Part shown: piece after piece, positions 12,427-22,450 of the stretch
Layout of the letters: each line of letters opens with the position of its first letter
Numbering within the stretch: the first letter of the stretch is position 1
Source: Rhizobium leguminosarum
GTDB lineage: Bacteria > Pseudomonadota > Alphaproteobacteria > Rhizobiales > Rhizobiaceae
Length of the DNA stretch: 64,000 nucleotides
Direction: 5' to 3'
Assembly (NCBI RefSeq): GCF_001679785.1
Contig: NZ_CP016286.1
Span: forward strand, 868,001-932,000
Notes under the pieces: model-generated
The model's database searches: none
Seen by the model: only the letters and a program-made list of their open reading frames with translations
Told to the model about the DNA's origin: nothing
Made by a program: the position numbers and the translations under genes

Positions 12427-14090
12427 AGTTTCCGTCCATAAACGCTGGTTTTCTTGAGCTTGCAGCGCACTTGGGTTCCGCTTGGTGGCCGCTTTGAAGC
12501 CATGCGGTGTGGCTCATGGGTGCTAATTGCGGCGGCCAGGATTTCTGGTGGACATGCGCGCATTGGCAACTGCCGGCGTCACGCCGGTCCGGTTTTGGCT
12601 GGCGACATGGGATGTCAGGTCGGCCTGAGGCGGGCGAAGAGGGCGAGATTGTATGCGACCACCGAGGACCAGACATAAGCCTTGAAGTGGTCGAGCCCAC
12701 GCCAGGTGCAGCGCCCCAAGCCGTAGGCGCGTTTGAGGCAGGAGATGCCGGCCTCGATGCCGGCGCGGAAGTTGCGCAGCTTGCGATAGACCCAGCGGCT
12801 CTTGACCATGTCTTCGATCCTGAGGCCGCACTTCTTGTGGAAGGCCATGTCGCAGATGCCCCAGGCTTTGGCTCGGCTCAAATTATCGCGGCTGGCATAG
12901 CCGCCGTCGGCCGCCGCCTGACGCGGCGCCTCGCCCCAGATGCCGATGTGGCGTTCCAGCATCGGCAGCAAGCGCTCGCTGTCGGCCGGGTTGCCGGTTT
13001 CGACGACGAGGTCGAGGATCAGCCCGCTTGTGCCGGTGGTCAAATTGATCTTATGGCCATACTCGACGTCGCGGCTGCCTTTGACGATGATGTCGGCATG
13101 CGGCTCGAACAAACTGACCAGCTTGTCGCCAGCCGGCACCGCCTCGCCGGCCAGGACCCGCCGCTCGGTCTGGGCGATGATCCGTTCGATCAGCGGCTTA
13201 TAGTGGCGGAGTTGGGCCTGCCAGAGTTCGACCGCCGGGCCCGCCGCCAAGGGCAGTTGCGCCGCCGCCTGTTCGAGATAGCTCAAGGTGGTGCGCGTGA
13301 TCCTGAGCAGCGCGCGATAGTGCTGAACTCGTTTCGGACGACCGCGGGTAAATTGGATCGCCCGGGATCGCTTCTTCGCCGCGCGGCAGTGATCGTGCCA
13401 TGAGATGGCGCTGCCCAAGGAAGCCGCCTGCTGCAACAGCCGCACCATCACCCGCACGCAGTCCCACAAAAGACTACTGTCGCTCGGTTCGTGCATCAGC
13501 GCCGAAGTGACGGTGCTGTCGATGCGCACGACCTTGCCGCGTTCCACCTTGTCCTGCCGGGCGCTCGTCAACAGCACGCGATTGATCGCTTCAAAGGTCC
13601 CGGCCCGGATCGCGCTGATCGTCTTGTGCAAGACCGACTTCTTCGGGTTCCACCCCCACGGCAGCCGGGCAAAGGCCCGGAACGAGGCGGAATCTTCCAG
13701 ATGAAAGGCCAACTCCTCATAACTCAACTGACGGTGTTGTTTGAGCAGGGCGCAACGCAGCACGGCCTCCGCCGGCAGGCCCTCGCGGCCGGTCTCCTTG
13801 ACGCCGTGGCGGCGCAGGTCCTGCGCTACCAGCCCGAGCAGATCACGATGCTCATCCAGCCATTGCGACATGGCTTTCAGCTCGCGGCCGATCTCGTGTT
13901 CGGCGAAAAGATCGAATATATTGGCTTGGACGGTGCGTTCTTGGCGCATTGTCGGCTCCGGCGGTTGCGGGTTTGTCTTTAGAATCAATGGCTTGATCTA
14001 AAGTATACCTGAAACCGCCGGGCTTTGCCCGTCGCAATATCGCTATTCCTCCAATAATTTCAGTGGTTTACCGTTTGTGGACGGGCACTA
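12427..14090. mobile_element. Insertion sequence with ISNCY-like transposase
   Basis: About 1.66 kb bounded by imperfect inverted repeats. The left end starts TAGTTTCCGTCCATAAACG (12427) and the right end, read inward on the minus strand from 14090, starts TAGTGCCCGTCCACAAACG, matching in 17 of the first 21 positions. The element contains one transposase on the minus strand. I see no convincing target duplication longer than a TA dinucleotide at the edges. It sits between lolD and the SOS-controlled DUF5680 gene and disrupts no visible frame. Exact ends are uncertain by a few bases. Confidence 0.85.
12615..13949 (-). CDS. ISNCY-family-like transposase
   Basis: A 444-residue protein that I recognise as an ISNCY-type (IS5-related) DDE transposase. 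It opens with RQERTVQANIFDLF and an N-terminal region with GLPAEAVLRCALLKQHRQLSYEELAFHL, typical of IS5-like DDE transposases. Candidate catalytic aspartates lie in VVRIDSTVTSALMH and AAADGGYASRDNL. The frame is intact, so the copy may be active. I chose the ATG at 13949, with GGAG eight bases upstream; a TTG at 13988 would add 13 residues. Family naming is from memory and could be IS5-group in a formal scheme. Confidence 0.85.
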   Translation of the reverse strand: MRQERTVQANIFDLFAEHEIGRELKAMSQWLDEHRDLLGLVAQDLRRHGVKETGREGLPAEAVLRCALLKQHRQLSYEELAFHLEDSASFRAFARLPWGWNPKKSVLHKTISAIRAGTFEAINRVLLTSARQDKVERGKVVRIDSTVTSALMHEPSDSSLLWDCVRVMVRLLQQAASLGSAISWHDHCRAAKKRSRAIQFTRGRPKRVQHYRALLRITRTTLSYLEQAAAQLPLAAGPAVELWQAQLRHYKPLIERIIAQTERRVLAGEAVPAGDKLVSLFEPHADIIVKGSRDVEYGHKINLTTGTSGLILDLVVETGNPADSERLLPMLERHIGIWGEAPRQAAADGGYASRDNLSRAKAWGICDMAFHKKCGLRIEDMVKSRWVYRKLRNFRAGIEAGISCLKRAYGLGRCTWRGLDHFKAYVWSSVVAYNLALFARLRPT

Positions 14091-14214: not shown

Positions 14215-14679
14215 TCAGGGGATGACCAGCCCGCCGCGATAATCGAGCATATAGGCCTTCTGGCCATCGACCATGATGCATTCGTGGCCGATGAACCGCT
14301 CGCAGCCGCCTTCGCTGCTGTCGATATAGCGGCCGAACGGATGGTCGAATTCCATCCCGCCAAGAAACCGGCCCTCGCGATACATCGCCGAAAGTGCGGC
14401 CTTGATCACTGCTCCGGCTGCTGTGCCGTCGATGAGCTCAGGCGCAATGACGCAGCCGAAATAATTCATCGCCCAGACGGGCTCGTCGGCAAGCCACACC
14501 ACTTCCTGTCCGGCGAAATCGGTCCCGCCGAAATAGCTGTCGAGATAGCGCCAGTCGCCGCGTTCGTAACCGATATCGTGGGCACCCGGCCGACAGGACG
14601 CGCGCGCCACGCCGCCGCCGACATAGGTCGCAGCCTTCGCCTCCACGACGAATTCGTTCAGCATCGCAATATCGAGCAT
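14215..14679 (-). CDS. DUF5680 domain protein under an SOS box
   Basis: A 154-residue soluble protein of the DUF5680 family, whose function is unknown. Family hallmarks are the N-terminal LNEFVVEAKAATYVGGG, then YERGDWRYLDSYFGGTDFAGQEVVW, PVWAMNYFG, MYREGRFLGG and the C-terminal YMLDYRGGLV. No signal peptide or membrane helix is visible. The ATG at 14679 has a strong GAGGAG seven bases upstream; the open frame continues to 14826 but lacks a comparable start. A perfect GTTC-N7-GTTC box lies 50-64 bp upstream of the start, so LexA control is predicted. It is divergent from the 28-residue peptide gene at 14978. Confidence 0.85.
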   Translation of the reverse strand: MLDIAMLNEFVVEAKAATYVGGGVARASCRPGAHDIGYERGDWRYLDSYFGGTDFAGQEVVWLADEPVWAMNYFGCVIAPELIDGTAAGAVIKAALSAMYREGRFLGGMEFDHPFGRYIDSSEGGCERFIGHECIMVDGQKAYMLDYRGGLVIP

Positions 14680-14728
14680 GTCATTCTCCTCTCGGCCCGA
14701 TGCTGGCAAATATGCCGCGGTATGTAAA

Positions 14729-14743
14729 GAACAAAAAGGGAAC
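14729..14743 (-). promoter_or_regulatory. SOS (LexA) box for the DUF5680 gene
   Basis: On the minus strand the sequence is GTTCCCTTTTTGTTC, an exact GTTC-N7-GTTC, which is the published alphaproteobacterial LexA operator consensus. It lies 50-64 bp upstream of the DUF5680 start codon, a normal operator position. Confidence 0.75.
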
Positions 14744-14920
14744 ATAGGTGAGAAATAAAGAGTCGCCCTGAGGAGGTCTGCCGCCTGAGCACCATGACCG
14801 ATCTGCGGCGGATCGGGAAAGGGCAAGGCTGCTGCCGATCACATCGGGCGCCGGCCCTTAGCCGATTCGTCGCCTATTTCCTGGGATTTTCGAACACAAG
14901 AAAGAAGGAAAAGATTCCTG

Positions 14921-14949
14921 TTGACAACAGAACATACATGGAACAAATT
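14921..14949 (+). promoter_or_regulatory. Promoter overlapped by an SOS (LexA) box
   Basis: TTGACA at 14921-14926, a 17-bp spacer and a weak -10 CAAATT at 14944-14949. The spacer and -10 are covered by GAACATACATGGAAC (14930-14944), a perfect GAAC-N7-GAAC, which is the alphaproteobacterial LexA box in the opposite orientation. It is positioned to repress the peptide gene starting at 14978. A further half-site-like AAAC follows at the same 7-base spacing. Confidence 0.72.
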
Positions 14950-14977
14950 GAAAACATAACGAGTAAAGGAGAGCCCG

Positions 14978-15064
14978 ATGACTGACATGATCCGTGATAT
15001 CGCAGCATTCACCTCCATCGCAATGTTCGTTGCCAGCTTCTCGCTCATCGTCATGGCGCTCTAA
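14978..15064 (+). CDS. 28-residue membrane peptide under SOS control (predicted)
   Basis: A short frame encoding 28 residues, beginning MTDMIRDI and ending LIVMAL before TAA. Residues about 9-28 form one uninterrupted hydrophobic helix with small residues, long enough to span the inner membrane; the N-terminus is short and charged. A strong ribosome binding site AAAGGAGA lies eight bases upstream of the ATG. The promoter carries a perfect LexA box, and a 10-bp hairpin follows the stop by 10 bases. Size, topology and SOS control resemble TisB of E. coli (29 residues), but no sequence homology is claimed. The coding call is inference from RBS, hydrophobicity and operator. Confidence 0.65.
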   Translation: MTDMIRDIAAFTSIAMFVASFSLIVMAL

Positions 15065-15074
15065 ACTTTTCAGG

Positions 15075-15099
15075 GGACCGCATGGTAATCATGCGGTCC
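15075..15099 (+). terminator. Hairpin after the SOS peptide gene
   Basis: A perfect 10-bp stem GGACCGCATG / CATGCGGTCC with loop GTAAT, starting 10 bases after the peptide stop codon. There is no U run after it, so it may be a rho-independent-like stop of low efficiency or an mRNA-stabilising structure. Confidence 0.5.
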
Positions 15100-15181
15100 G
15101 GACGCGGGACTTCTTCTGGACATCATCGCCCTCTATGCCGACAATGCGTCCGATTCATTCGGGTGATTGGGAAGGCATGTT

Positions 15182-18100
15182 ATGGCGGATACGGCAAAGG
15201 GTTCAACGGGTGAGGCGACCGGCGGTACGCCGGGTTTCATCCACCTGAGGGTCCATTCCGCCTATTCGCTTCTCGAGGGCGCCCTGCCGCTGAAGAAGAT
15301 CCTCTACAAGGCGACCGGCGACAGCCAGCCGGCGATTGCGATTACCGACACCAACAATCTGTTTGTCGCCCTCGAATTCTCCCAGAAGGCGATGGAGGAC
15401 GGCCTGCAGCCGATCATCGGCTGTCAGGTCTCGATCGATATGGGAGACGGGTTGGAAACGGAAAAGCGCGGCGGCCAGCAGGCCCTGGTCAAGCTGCCGG
15501 CGATCGTTCTTCTTGCCGCGACGGATGCCGGTTACGAACGGCTGGTCGATCTTGTCAGCCGGGCCTATCTCGGCGGCGAGAGCAACCAGGCCGTTCATAT
15601 CAGCGCCTCCTGGCTTGAGGAGGCAGGCACGGAAGGGCTGATCGCATTGAGCGGCGCCTTGACCGGGCCGGTCGACGTGGCGATCAAGGAAGGCCATCCC
15701 GCTCAGGCGGAAGCCCGGCTGCTCACGCTCAAGCGCCTCTTCGGCGATAGGCTCTATGTCGAGCTGCAGCGGCACGGCACCTACGACAAGCGGCACGAGC
15801 AGAAGATTATCGGGCTCGCCTATGCCCACGACCTGCCGCTGGTTGCGACCAACGAGGCCTTCTTTCCGACCCGCGACGATTACGACGCCCATGATGCGCT
15901 GATGGCGGTCGCGCACAACGCCATCGTCTCCGACGACAGCCGCTTTCGCCTGACGCCGGATCACTATCTGAAGAGCCGGGCCGAGATGGTCAAGCTTTTC
16001 GCCGACCTGCCGGAAGCACTGGAAAATACGATCGAGATTGCCACGCGCTGCTCCTTCGTGCTGAAGACGCGAAAGCCGATCCTGCCACGCTTCACCGGGG
16101 CGACCGACGATGCCGAGGAGGCCGAACGCGCCGAGGCGAGCGAGCTGCGCCGCCAGGCGGTCGAAGGACTGGATATGCGGCTTGCAACGCTCGGCATGTC
16201 GCCGGGTTACGAGGAAAAGGATTATCGCGAACGGCTGGATTTCGAGCTCAGCGTCATCGAGCGCATGCGTTTTCCCGGTTACTTCCTGATCGTTGCCGAC
16301 TTCATCAAATGGGCCAAGCAGCATGACATTCCGGTCGGTCCCGGCCGCGGTTCGGGCGCCGGCTCGCTGGTCGCCTATGCATTGACGATCACCGACGTCG
16401 ATCCCTTGCGTTTTTCGCTGCTCTTCGAGCGCTTCCTCAATCCGGAACGCGTCTCGATGCCGGACTTCGACATCGATTTCTGCCAGGACCGCCGCGAAGA
16501 GGTGATCCGCTATGTCCAGGCCAAGTATGGCCGCGAGCAGGTGGCGCAGATCATCACTTTCGGTTCGCTGCAAGCGCGCGCCGCCCTTCGCGACGTCGGC
16601 CGCGTGCTGGAAATGCCCTATGGCCAGGTCGACAAGATCTGCAAACTCGTGCCGAACAATCCCGCCAATCCGACGCCGCTGTCCAAGGCGATCGAGGAGG
16701 AGCCGAAGCTGCAGGAGGAGGCGGCAAAGGAACCTGTTGTCGCGCGGCTGCTTGATATCGCCCAGAAGATCGAGGGGCTTTACCGCCATGCCTCGACCCA
16801 TGCCGCCGGCATCGTCATCGGCGACCGGCCGCTTTCCAAGCTGGTGCCGATGTATCGCGATCCGCGTTCGGACATGCCGGTCACCCAGTTCAACATGAAA
16901 TGGGTGGAGCAGGCAGGTCTCGTCAAGTTCGACTTCCTCGGCCTGAAGACGCTGACCGTGCTGAAGGTCGCGGTCGATTTCGTCGCCAAGCTTGGCGTCA
17001 AGGTCGATCTCGCGGCCATTCCTCTCGACGACAAGAAGACCTACGAGATGCTGTCGCGCGGCGAGACGGTCGGCGTGTTCCAGGTGGAAAGTGCCGGCAT
17101 GCGCAAGGCGCTGATCGGCATGAAGCCGGACTGCATCGAGGACATCATCGCGCTGGTGGCGCTCTATCGTCCTGGCCCGATGGAGAATATCCCGACCTAC
17201 AATGCCCGCAAGCACGGCGAAGAAGAGCTGGAATCGATCCATCCGATGATCGACCACCTGCTCAAGGAAACGCAAGGCGTCATCGTTTATCAGGAACAGG
17301 TGATGCAGATCGCCCAGGTACTATCAGGCTATTCGCTTGGCGAAGCCGACCTTCTGCGCCGCGCCATGGGCAAGAAGATCAAGGCCGAGATGGACCAGCA
17401 GCGCGAACGCTTCGTCGTTGGCGCGGTCAAGAATGGCGTATCGAAGCCGCAGGCCGACAATATCTTCGAACTGCTGGCGAAGTTCGCCAATTACGGCTTC
17501 AACAAGTCGCATGCCGCCGCCTATGCCATCGTCTCCTACCAGACGGCCTACATGAAGGCGCATTACCCGGTCGAATTCCTCGCCGCCTCGATGACGCTCG
17601 ACATGTCCAACACCGAAAAGGTCAATGATTTCCGTCAGGATGCCAAGCGCCTCGGCATCGAGGTGATCGCACCCTCGGTGCAGAGCTCCTTCCGCCATTT
17701 CGAGACCGGCGACAACCGCATCTATTACGCGCTCGCCGCCCTCAAGGGCGTCGGCGAATCCGCCGTCGACCATATCGTCGAGGTGCGTGGCGACAAGCCC
17801 TTTGCCAGCATCGAGGATTTCTGCCTGCGCATCGATCCGCGCCAGGTCAATCGTCGCGTGCTCGAAAGCCTGATCTATGCCGGCGCCTTCGATTGTTTCG
17901 ACATGGACCGCGCCCAGCTGGCAGCCGGCCTCGACCGTGTTCTCGGTTATGCCCAGCGCGCCCAGGAGAACAAGCTGAGCGGCCAGTCGGATATTTTCGG
18001 CAGTACGCTGACGTCGGGGCCTGAGAAGATCTCCCTGCCGCCGTTCTCGCCCTGGCTCCCCTCCGAGCGGCTGCTCAAGGAATTCCAGGTGCTGGGCTTC

Positions 18101-18679
18101 TATCTGACGGCCCACCCGCTCGATTCCTACAACAACATCCTGCAGAAGATGCGGGTGCAGACCTTTGCCGAGTTTTCCGCCGCCATCAAACAGGGCGCGG
18201 CCAATGCGCGGCTTGCCGGTACCGTCATCTCGAAGCAGGAGCGCAAGACTCGCACCGGCAACAAGATGGGCATCATCGTCTTCTCCGATTCTTCGGGCCA
18301 GTTCGAAGCGGTGCTGTTTTCGGAAATGCTGAACCAGTATCGCGACGTGCTCGAATCGGGAAAATCCTTCGTGCTGACTGCGACGGGCGAGGAGCGGCCG
18401 GAGGGCATCGGCCTGCGCATCCAGACGATCCAGTCGCTGGAGGAAAAGTCACTGCAGATGCAGAAGGCGCTGCGCGTCTATGTCCGCGATTCCGGACCGC
18501 TGCGGATGGTCGCCGGCCATCTGAACGCCAAGGGCGACGGCCTCGTCTCCTTCATCGTCATCAAGGAGGATGGCAAACGCGAGGTGGAAGTGGCGCTGCC
18601 GGAGAAATACCGCATCACGCCGGAGATTGCCGCCGCCCTTCGCGCCGCCCCGGGGGTCGTCGACGTCGAGCTCGTCTGA
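15182..18679 (+). CDS. dnaE: DNA polymerase III subunit alpha
   Basis: This 1165-residue replicative polymerase catalytic subunit synthesises both strands at the fork. The N-terminal PHP domain begins FIHLRVHSAYSLLEGALP (about residues 19-36). The palm carries GPGRGSGAGSLVAYAL (about 385-400) and PDFDIDFCQDRREEVI near 428-443, with the catalytic aspartates. Thumb and fingers, helix-hairpin-helix and OB-fold (tRNA_anti, about 1010-1090) regions follow in the usual order. Length is that of dnaE1, not the shorter imuB-associated dnaE2. The ATG at 15182 has GGAAGG six bases upstream; a TTG at 15167 is also in frame. It ends one base before the convergent transpeptidase stop. Confidence 0.96.
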   Translation: MADTAKGSTGEATGGTPGFIHLRVHSAYSLLEGALPLKKILYKATGDSQPAIAITDTNNLFVALEFSQKAMEDGLQPIIGCQVSIDMGDGLETEKRGGQQALVKLPAIVLLAATDAGYERLVDLVSRAYLGGESNQAVHISASWLEEAGTEGLIALSGALTGPVDVAIKEGHPAQAEARLLTLKRLFGDRLYVELQRHGTYDKRHEQKIIGLAYAHDLPLVATNEAFFPTRDDYDAHDALMAVAHNAIVSDDSRFRLTPDHYLKSRAEMVKLFADLPEALENTIEIATRCSFVLKTRKPILPRFTGATDDAEEAERAEASELRRQAVEGLDMRLATLGMSPGYEEKDYRERLDFELSVIERMRFPGYFLIVADFIKWAKQHDIPVGPGRGSGAGSLVAYALTITDVDPLRFSLLFERFLNPERVSMPDFDIDFCQDRREEVIRYVQAKYGREQVAQIITFGSLQARAALRDVGRVLEMPYGQVDKICKLVPNNPANPTPLSKAIEEEPKLQEEAAKEPVVARLLDIAQKIEGLYRHASTHAAGIVIGDRPLSKLVPMYRDPRSDMPVTQFNMKWVEQAGLVKFDFLGLKTLTVLKVAVDFVAKLGVKVDLAAIPLDDKKTYEMLSRGETVGVFQVESAGMRKALIGMKPDCIEDIIALVALYRPGPMENIPTYNARKHGEEELESIHPMIDHLLKETQGVIVYQEQVMQIAQVLSGYSLGEADLLRRAMGKKIKAEMDQQRERFVVGAVKNGVSKPQADNIFELLAKFANYGFNKSHAAAYAIVSYQTAYMKAHYPVEFLAASMTLDMSNTEKVNDFRQDAKRLGIEVIAPSVQSSFRHFETGDNRIYYALAALKGVGESAVDHIVEVRGDKPFASIEDFCLRIDPRQVNRRVLESLIYAGAFDCFDMDRAQLAAGLDRVLGYAQRAQENKLSGQSDIFGSTLTSGPEKISLPPFSPWLPSERLLKEFQVLGFYLTAHPLDSYNNILQKMRVQTFAEFSAAIKQGAANARLAGTVISKQERKTRTGNKMGIIVFSDSSGQFEAVLFSEMLNQYRDVLESGKSFVLTATGEERPEGIGLRIQTIQSLEEKSLQMQKALRVYVRDSGPLRMVAGHLNAKGDGLVSFIVIKEDGKREVEVALPEKYRITPEIAAALRAAPGVVDVELV

Positions 18680-22435: not shown

Positions 22436-22450
22436 GAACAAAGATTGAAC
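22436..22450 (-). promoter_or_regulatory. SOS (LexA) box between dinB and the GNAT gene
   Basis: On the minus strand GTTCAATCTTTGTTC is an exact GTTC-N7-GTTC operator ending two bases before the dinB ATG. On the plus strand it is GAACAAAGATTGAAC, 42-56 bp upstream of the GNAT start, so it could control both divergent genes. Confidence 0.78.

What the first reader, a model, noticed from the sequence alone, without database searches (positions are those of the whole stretch)
14921..15064. SOS-controlled 28-residue membrane peptide, TisB-like in design
Seen: a promoter TTGACA-N17-CAAATT whose spacer and -10 are covered by a perfect GAAC-N7-GAAC (14930-14944), a strong AAAGGAGA RBS, a 28-codon frame with one membrane helix, and a 10-bp hairpin after the stop. 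Known: GTTC-N7-GTTC is the LexA operator of alphaproteobacteria; TisB of E. coli is a 29-residue SOS-induced membrane toxin. Inference: this may be an SOS-induced membrane-acting peptide in Rhizobium, analogous but not homologous to TisB. It is easily missed because of its size.
Basis: partly seen in the sequence, partly recalled or inferred. Interest (0 to 1): 0.75.

Follow-up and report, generated by a model that had tools for sequence, protein, structure and literature searches.

The report
Rhizobial SidA-like SOS division-blocking peptide
A tiny, easily missed gene next to the replicative DNA polymerase gene makes a 28-residue membrane peptide that looks DNA-damage controlled, and it most likely stops rhizobial cells from dividing while DNA is broken, as the SidA peptide does in Caulobacter.

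Summary
A GAAC-N7-GAAC LexA box (14930-14944), a ribosome-binding site and a 28-codon single-helix frame (14978-15064) lie 117 nt before dnaE (15182). The frame is a gene: 37 of 37 same-genus genomes match it over 27-28 residues without a stop. In the 55 best loci fetched (own included) start and stop are kept in 55, pN/pS is 0.16-0.25 and a perfect box is present in 53; dnaE follows in 55. Sinorhizobium meliloti has a 28-aa homologue at the same place, where a published study reports a translated "sORF25" in the dnaE1 5'-UTR (PMC10117765).

TisB is not the best model. Caulobacteraceae carry a 29-31-aa single-helix peptide before dnaE (30 of 30 loci, perfect LexA box in 21). Its profile aligns gapless from Met1 with the rhizobial one (0 of 200 permutations as good in either scheme). 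Length, control and place fit SidA, Caulobacter's 29-aa SOS-induced FtsW inhibitor. Most likely this is a rhizobial SidA orthologue, a division-checkpoint peptide rather than a depolarising toxin. Box-plus-peptide units precede dnaE in 17 of 90 class-wide loci (own included; controls 0-2). Action on FtsW is inferred.

The parts
14921..14926 (+). putative -35 element TTGACA
   Evidence: read; TTGA within 14 nt before the box in 40 of 53 loci with a box
14944..14949 (+). putative -10 element CAAATT (weak)
   Evidence: not called by the promoter scan
14930..14944 (+). LexA (SOS) operator GAACATACATGGAAC
   Evidence: perfect box in 53 of 55 loci; same kind of box before own lexA
14952..14955 (+). 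degenerate third half-site AAAC, same 11-bp spacing
   Evidence: AAAC in 38 of 53 loci; a full third GAAC in S. meliloti
14965..14972 (+). ribosome-binding site AAAGGAGA
14978..15064 (+). 28-codon gene for a single-helix membrane peptide, SidA-like
   Evidence: 37 of 37 same-genus genomes match over 27-28 residues; start and stop kept in 55 of 55 loci, pN/pS 0.16-0.25; profile match to Caulobacteraceae peptides
15075..15099 (+). 10-bp hairpin after the stop, no U-tract
   Evidence: a 10-pair hairpin within 45 nt after the stop in 23 of 33 same-genus loci and 0 of 22 loci of other genera; base changes in L013 keep pairing by G-U wobbles
15182..18679 (+). dnaE (replicative DNA polymerase III alpha), fixed downstream neighbour
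   Evidence: same strand and downstream of the peptide in 55 of 55 loci, 99-187 nt away and 526 nt in one
14729..14743 (+). second LexA box, at the divergent DUF5680 gene
14215..14679 (-). DUF5680 gene, divergent neighbour, perhaps also SOS-controlled
   Evidence: Pfam PF18931, 88.9 bits; a box of its own in 15 of 18 loci where it is adjacent

Best explanation
It is the rhizobial orthologue of SidA. LexA bound to the box blocks the promoter (inferred from the box and its conservation). DNA damage removes LexA and the 28-aa peptide is made (translation of a short frame at this place in S. meliloti is published as sORF25; that it is this frame is inferred). The peptide inserts in the inner membrane as one helix, probably with its short R/D-bearing N-terminus inside (predicted). 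It binds the FtsW/FtsI/FtsN septal synthase and holds it inactive until repair is done (inferred from SidA). Read-through into dnaE may raise polymerase level as a secondary effect (speculative).
For: Real gene. Conserved LexA box; own lexA has the same kind. Fixed place before dnaE: (55 of 55), named S. meliloti and Shinella. Same place, length and boxes in Caulobacteraceae: (30 of 30 fetched loci before dnaE, perfect box within 150 nt in 21 of 30); one named Phenylobacterium and three named Caulobacteraceae records, 4 of 4 with box and peptide. Profile match, 19 columns gapless from residue 1, E 8.5e-5, 0 of 200 permutations as good in each of two schemes. SidA is a 29-aa SOS-induced inner-membrane FtsW inhibitor (PMC4211646, passages); filamentation of lexA-null Caulobacter depends on sidA (PMC12700426, passages). 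C. crescentus dnaE is CC1926 (PMC1839093, passage) and is listed as SOS-regulated (PMC3323433, section 8 read), as expected if the box before it belongs to sidA.
Against: No functional or expression data for this genome. The published SidA letters were not available: that the dnaE-adjacent 29-aa frame of Caulobacter is SidA rests on length, box, place and recall (I recall sidA as CC1927; one search found no held paper with that tag). Family f90 and genus g417 are taken as Caulobacteraceae and Caulobacter by inference. The RNA marker used rings over its cut-off in 7 of 9 f90 genomes of several genera but not in one g417 genome, and also in a non-Caulobacteraceae genome. The best permuted profile score in one scheme (19.6) comes close to the observed 19.7. 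The rhizobial profile finds nothing convincing in other families, the FVW invariant in the aligned Caulobacteraceae peptides is only FV/FI-x in rhizobia, and Rhizomicrobium-type peptides do not match the Caulobacteraceae ones. 9 of 30 Caulobacteraceae loci lack a perfect box. At E <= 0.01, 205 of 394 family genomes show no match.
Confidence: 0.72

Rival explanations
1. TisB-like toxin: under SOS the peptide self-assembles in the membrane, lowers the proton-motive force and causes dormancy.
For: Size, one helix, LexA box.
Against: No charged residue in residues 8-28 in any of 30 distinct homologues; no Rfam family of note nearby; fixed place before dnaE and purifying selection. No match in 50,697 phage records and one among 72,556 plasmid records, a Shinella replicon that carries dnaE right behind it; this is weak evidence, because the same search missed the S. 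meliloti homologue held in that collection.
Confidence: 0.06
2. Upstream ORF or leader peptide that tunes dnaE translation or transcription, as suggested for S. meliloti sORF25.
For: Just before dnaE in 55 of 55 loci; published suggestion (PMC10117765, section 24 read); dnaE listed as SOS-regulated in C. crescentus; a hairpin between the two frames in 23 of 33 same-genus loci.
Against: Selection acts on the amino acids of a membrane helix (pN/pS 0.16-0.25); in the Caulobacteraceae loci the distance to the dnaE match varies from 20 to 344 nt; the hairpin is found in 0 of 22 loci of other genera.
Confidence: 0.1
3. SOS-induced membrane peptide with another partner (a protease, transporter or other envelope enzyme), unrelated in target to SidA.
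For: Small single-helix proteins have many partners (recalled); sequence similarity to the Caulobacteraceae peptides is short.
Against: Same place, box and profile as the Caulobacteraceae peptides.
Confidence: 0.1
4. Chance frame or artefact.
For: The box alone is not rare in the genome.
Against: Conservation of frame, stop and box.
Confidence: 0.01

Closest known systems
SidA of Caulobacter crescentus (CCNA_02004)
   Same: 29 against 28 aa, one inner-membrane helix, LexA control, place before dnaE (for Caulobacteraceae genomes), gapless profile match over residues 1-19
   Different: Low identity (32% over 19 aligned columns); the FVW of the Caulobacteraceae peptides is not kept; FtsW binding untested here
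Sinorhizobium meliloti sORF25 (PMC10117765)
   Same: Frame in the dnaE1 5'-UTR, found translated; in S. meliloti Ak57 the short frame behind the LexA boxes before dnaE is the 28-aa homologue MADFVRDLAAFASMSLFIVSISVIALGL, the most hydrophobic of 5 short frames there
   Different: Described there as a possible upstream ORF, with no SOS or SidA link in the text searched; its letters were not seen, so identity is by place
TisB of E. coli
   Same: 29 aa, one helix, LexA-controlled (recalled)
   Different: Charged amphipathic helix, antisense RNA IstR-1 and long structured leader (recalled) have no counterpart found here
YneA, SosA, SulA (other SOS division inhibitors)
   Same: SOS-induced division arrest; YneA interacts with FtsW (PMC13396833, search listing only)
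   Different: Larger or cytosolic and unrelated in sequence (recalled)

Membership tests
SidA | peptide of about 29 aa with one membrane helix | tested here: met
   28 aa; Kyte-Doolittle mean 2.27 over residues 8-28, no charge there
SidA | LexA operator at the promoter | tested here: met
   perfect box, 53 of 55 loci
SidA | place just before dnaE | tested here: met
   55 of 55 rhizobial loci; 30 of 30 Caulobacteraceae loci. That sidA of C. crescentus itself has this place is recalled, not shown
SidA | sequence homology to the Caulobacter peptide | tested here: met
   hhalign E 8.5e-5, 0 of 200 permutations; compared with Caulobacteraceae dnaE-adjacent peptides, not with the published SidA letters
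SidA | induction by DNA damage through RecA/LexA | not testable with these tools
   needs transcript data
SidA | binds FtsW and blocks division | not testable with these tools
   needs genetics and interaction assays
TisB | charged amphipathic helix | tested here: not met
   no D, E, K or R in residues 8-28 of 30 distinct homologues; the TisB property is recalled
TisB | antisense RNA partner | tested here: inconclusive
   no Rfam match of note in 14300-15600; unknown RNAs cannot be excluded
TisB | sequence homology | not tested
   TisB was not compared letter by letter; no Pfam or NCBIfam family matches the peptide

The most novel reading that the evidence does not exclude
SidA is not a Caulobacter speciality. 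It is the local form of an ancient LexA-controlled division-checkpoint peptide, encoded just before the replicative polymerase gene and inherited from an early ancestor of Alphaproteobacteria; its sequence drifts so fast outside a short R/K-D/E...A...S core that homology searches miss it.
Probability: 0.6. Interest if true: 0.72.

Novelty: new member of a known kind. Interest (0 to 1): 0.6.

Why it matters
My paper searches showed no named SOS division inhibitor of rhizobia (listings, with a few papers opened). This gives a concrete 28-codon candidate, would explain why dnaE was listed as a LexA target in Caulobacter, would give a function to the translated S. meliloti sORF25, and makes a class-wide DNA-damage checkpoint directly testable with one frame deletion.

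Tried and rejected
Pfam and NCBIfam scans of two peptides: no family. A class-wide profile search gave only weak scattered hits beyond the own genome (best E 0.0036), so I turned to position: what lies before dnaE. Whole-genome counts of the box and of a TTGA-plus-box pattern do not single the site out (8 places against 3 control). The homologous-protein search is barred for queries under 40 aa. I assumed family f31 was Caulobacteraceae from an RNA marker; the named scan showed it to be a Rhizomicrobium-type group, and Caulobacteraceae came from the named loci of that scan. Structure prediction was not used: 28 aa is below its limit and I saw no way to model a complex with FtsW. TisB-like toxin, leader-only and artefact readings were considered and ranked lower.

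Rows dropped before counts: 25 of 115 class-wide dnaE places were not fetched (90 examined, own included; one stretch, L123, is cut to 250 bases by its contig end). In one search one of 15 Caulobacteraceae rows was left out, one was cut from 31 to 29 residues, and 17 Rhizomicrobium-type peptides were cut to 31 columns. The 55 rhizobial loci (49 distinct coding sequences) and 30 Caulobacteraceae loci are best-scoring matches and lean towards conservation. In one search the frame picked for L099 is not the likely one (one search shows a better one); the three other boxed loci, L093, L097 and L162, have candidate peptides by eye that fell outside the automatic rule.

Full report
What is there. 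Small corrections: the box overlaps only the first base of the -10; the -10 is weak, and neither this promoter nor a terminator is called by the scan. The box motif by itself is not rare: 5 in the window against 1.69 expected, 235 in the genome against 212 for the reversed control.

It is a gene. The peptide matches over 27-28 of 28 residues, without a stop, in 37 of 37 same-genus genomes; of the 24 genomes of other families in that search one gave a chance-level hit at E 0.128. Within the family 226 of 394 genomes match at E <= 1 (which includes chance hits) and 189 of 394, in 47 of 109 genera, match a profile at E <= 0.01; the 205 others were not followed up. In the 55 best-scoring loci fetched (own included), ATG and stop are kept in 55 of 55, there are 49 distinct coding sequences, and mean pN/pS is 0.25 overall and 0.16 within the genus. 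Variable sites fall 21/7/27 of 27 each at codon positions 1, 2 and 3. A perfect box lies within 70 nt of the ATG in 53 of 55 with 34 different spacers. A third, degenerate half-site (AAAC) follows at the same spacing in 38 of 53. The own lexA has the same kind of box 48 nt before its matched start.

Where it sits. dnaE follows the peptide on the same strand in 55 of 55 loci, 99-187 nt away in 54 and 526 nt in one; in the window the gap is 117 nt. In a named record, S. meliloti Ak57 (filed as a plasmid but carrying dnaE), no gene is listed between the ABC-transporter gene and dnaE (that gene table is incomplete). The gap holds GAAC-N7-GAAC-N7-GAAC followed by MADFVRDLAAFASMSLFIVSISVIALGL, 28 aa. 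A Shinella record has MTDFLRDLAAFTSVAMFVASFSVILFGI behind the same kind of box and before dnaE. A ribosome-profiling and proteomics study of S. meliloti reports a translated novel sORF25 in the 5'-UTR of dnaE1 and suggests an upstream ORF (PMC10117765; section 24 read whole, other passages). That sORF25 is this peptide is my inference from place. The annotation of the window's own genome was not seen.

Beyond rhizobia. A profile search of 385 class genomes found nothing convincing by sequence outside the own genome. I therefore looked before dnaE: 115 of 143 class genomes gave a dnaE match, and 90 of the 115 upstream stretches were examined. 20 of 90 have a perfect box 60-640 nt before dnaE, and 17 of 90 (one of them the window's own) have a box followed by a hydrophobic frame of 22-45 aa; the other 3 have candidates by eye. 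Controls: four wrong spacings give 0, 0, 0 and 1, the reversed motif and the reverse strand 0 each, and the motif in the other orientation, which is the same operator reversed, 2. Many, not all, of the peptides share a short N-terminus with an aromatic residue and [K/R]-[D/E], then one helix. The 70 others lack a perfect box there.

The Caulobacteraceae link. A named scan gave 46 loci. One Phenylobacterium and three further Caulobacteraceae records, 4 of 4, have a box and MVIHLARESLAFV[S/T]VAGFVWVVCQFAYLVG before dnaE. In the wider order of G512, 50 of 200 genomes match the Phenylobacterium peptide at E <= 1 (weak hits included). The 30 loci fetched, all of family f90, have a dnaE match 20-344 nt downstream in 30 of 30 and a perfect box within 150 nt in 21 of 30; in the other 9 no perfect box was found. 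The peptides are 29-31 aa by the starts I chose; in genus g417 they are 29 aa, such as [29 protein letters not shown]. I take f90 as Caulobacteraceae because one member's peptide is identical to the named Phenylobacterium one, and g417 as Caulobacter from genome size and an RNA family that rings only in Caulobacter vibrioides among 14 controls. That marker is not clean: 7 of 9 f90 genomes tested are over its cut-off, of several genera, one g417 genome is not, and an unrelated genome misled me earlier.

Homology. Profile comparison of the rhizobial and Caulobacteraceae alignments gives 19 gapless columns from residue 1, probability 60, E 8.5e-5, identity 32%. 0 of 200 column permutations scored as well in each of two schemes, though the best permuted score in one scheme, 19.6, is close to the observed 19.7. 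Rhizomicrobium-type peptides match the rhizobial profile (2 and 0 of 200) but not the Caulobacteraceae one (21 and 40 of 200), so the wider family is less certain.

Known counterpart. SidA of C. [quoted passage not shown] a lexA deletion filaments because of sidA (PMC12700426, passages); its promoter responds to mitomycin C (PMC5189948, passages). sidA is CCNA_02004 (PMC11034885, passage); dnaE is CC1926 (PMC1839093, passage). I recall sidA as CC1927, which would be the gene next to dnaE, but no held paper has that tag, and the original SidA paper is not held. dnaE is listed among genes reported as SOS-regulated in C. crescentus in a comparative study (PMC3323433, section 8 read whole, passages of others), as expected if the operator is really that of sidA. 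The listings of my searches showed no report of SidA homologues outside Caulobacter; most listed papers were not opened.

How it most likely works. Shown here: the frame, its selection, the conserved box, the place, the profile match. Published for relatives: translation of a dnaE1-leader sORF in S. meliloti; SidA action in Caulobacter. Inferred: that this peptide is SidA's orthologue, that LexA represses it, that it is inserted N-in, and that it stalls the FtsW/FtsI/FtsN complex. A TisB-like pore is unlikely: the helix carries no charge in 30 of 30 distinct homologues and no antisense RNA family is seen. Searches of phage and plasmid records found only the dnaE-bearing Shinella replicon, but they also missed the S. 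meliloti homologue in the same collection, so they say little. A leader function for dnaE is possible in addition but does not explain selection on the amino acids.

Verdict. A real and easily missed gene; a new member of a known kind, with a good case that the kind is much older and wider than Caulobacter.

Noticed in passing
14729-14743 and 14215-14679: A second LexA box lies 49 nt before the divergent DUF5680 gene. Among 18 loci where that gene is adjacent, 15 have such a second box and 3 have one box between the two genes, so DUF5680 looks like another SOS gene.
   Followed up: partly
L292:3223-3248: In S. meliloti the operator is three GAAC half-sites 11 bp apart, two overlapping LexA boxes; in the window the third half-site reads AAAC.
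   Followed up: partly
12615-13988: A transposase gene (DDE_Tnp_1) lies between the lolD-like gene and DUF5680; copies about 97% identical are on plasmids of Rhizobium sp. T136.
   Followed up: no
own genome, 16 places listed: Sixteen equal-scoring copies of a 108-aa frame that weakly matches the LexA DNA-binding domain, spread over several contigs, perhaps part of a mobile element.
   Followed up: no
22436-22450: Another perfect box, GAACAAAGATTGAAC, with an A/T-rich spacer; its gene was not examined.
   Followed up: no
L176, L177: Two further DnaE-family genes of the own genome show no perfect box in the stretches fetched.
   Followed up: no
15075-15099: A 10-pair hairpin after the peptide stop is present in 23 of 33 same-genus loci and 0 of 22 others, without a U-tract in the window; role unknown.
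   Followed up: partly
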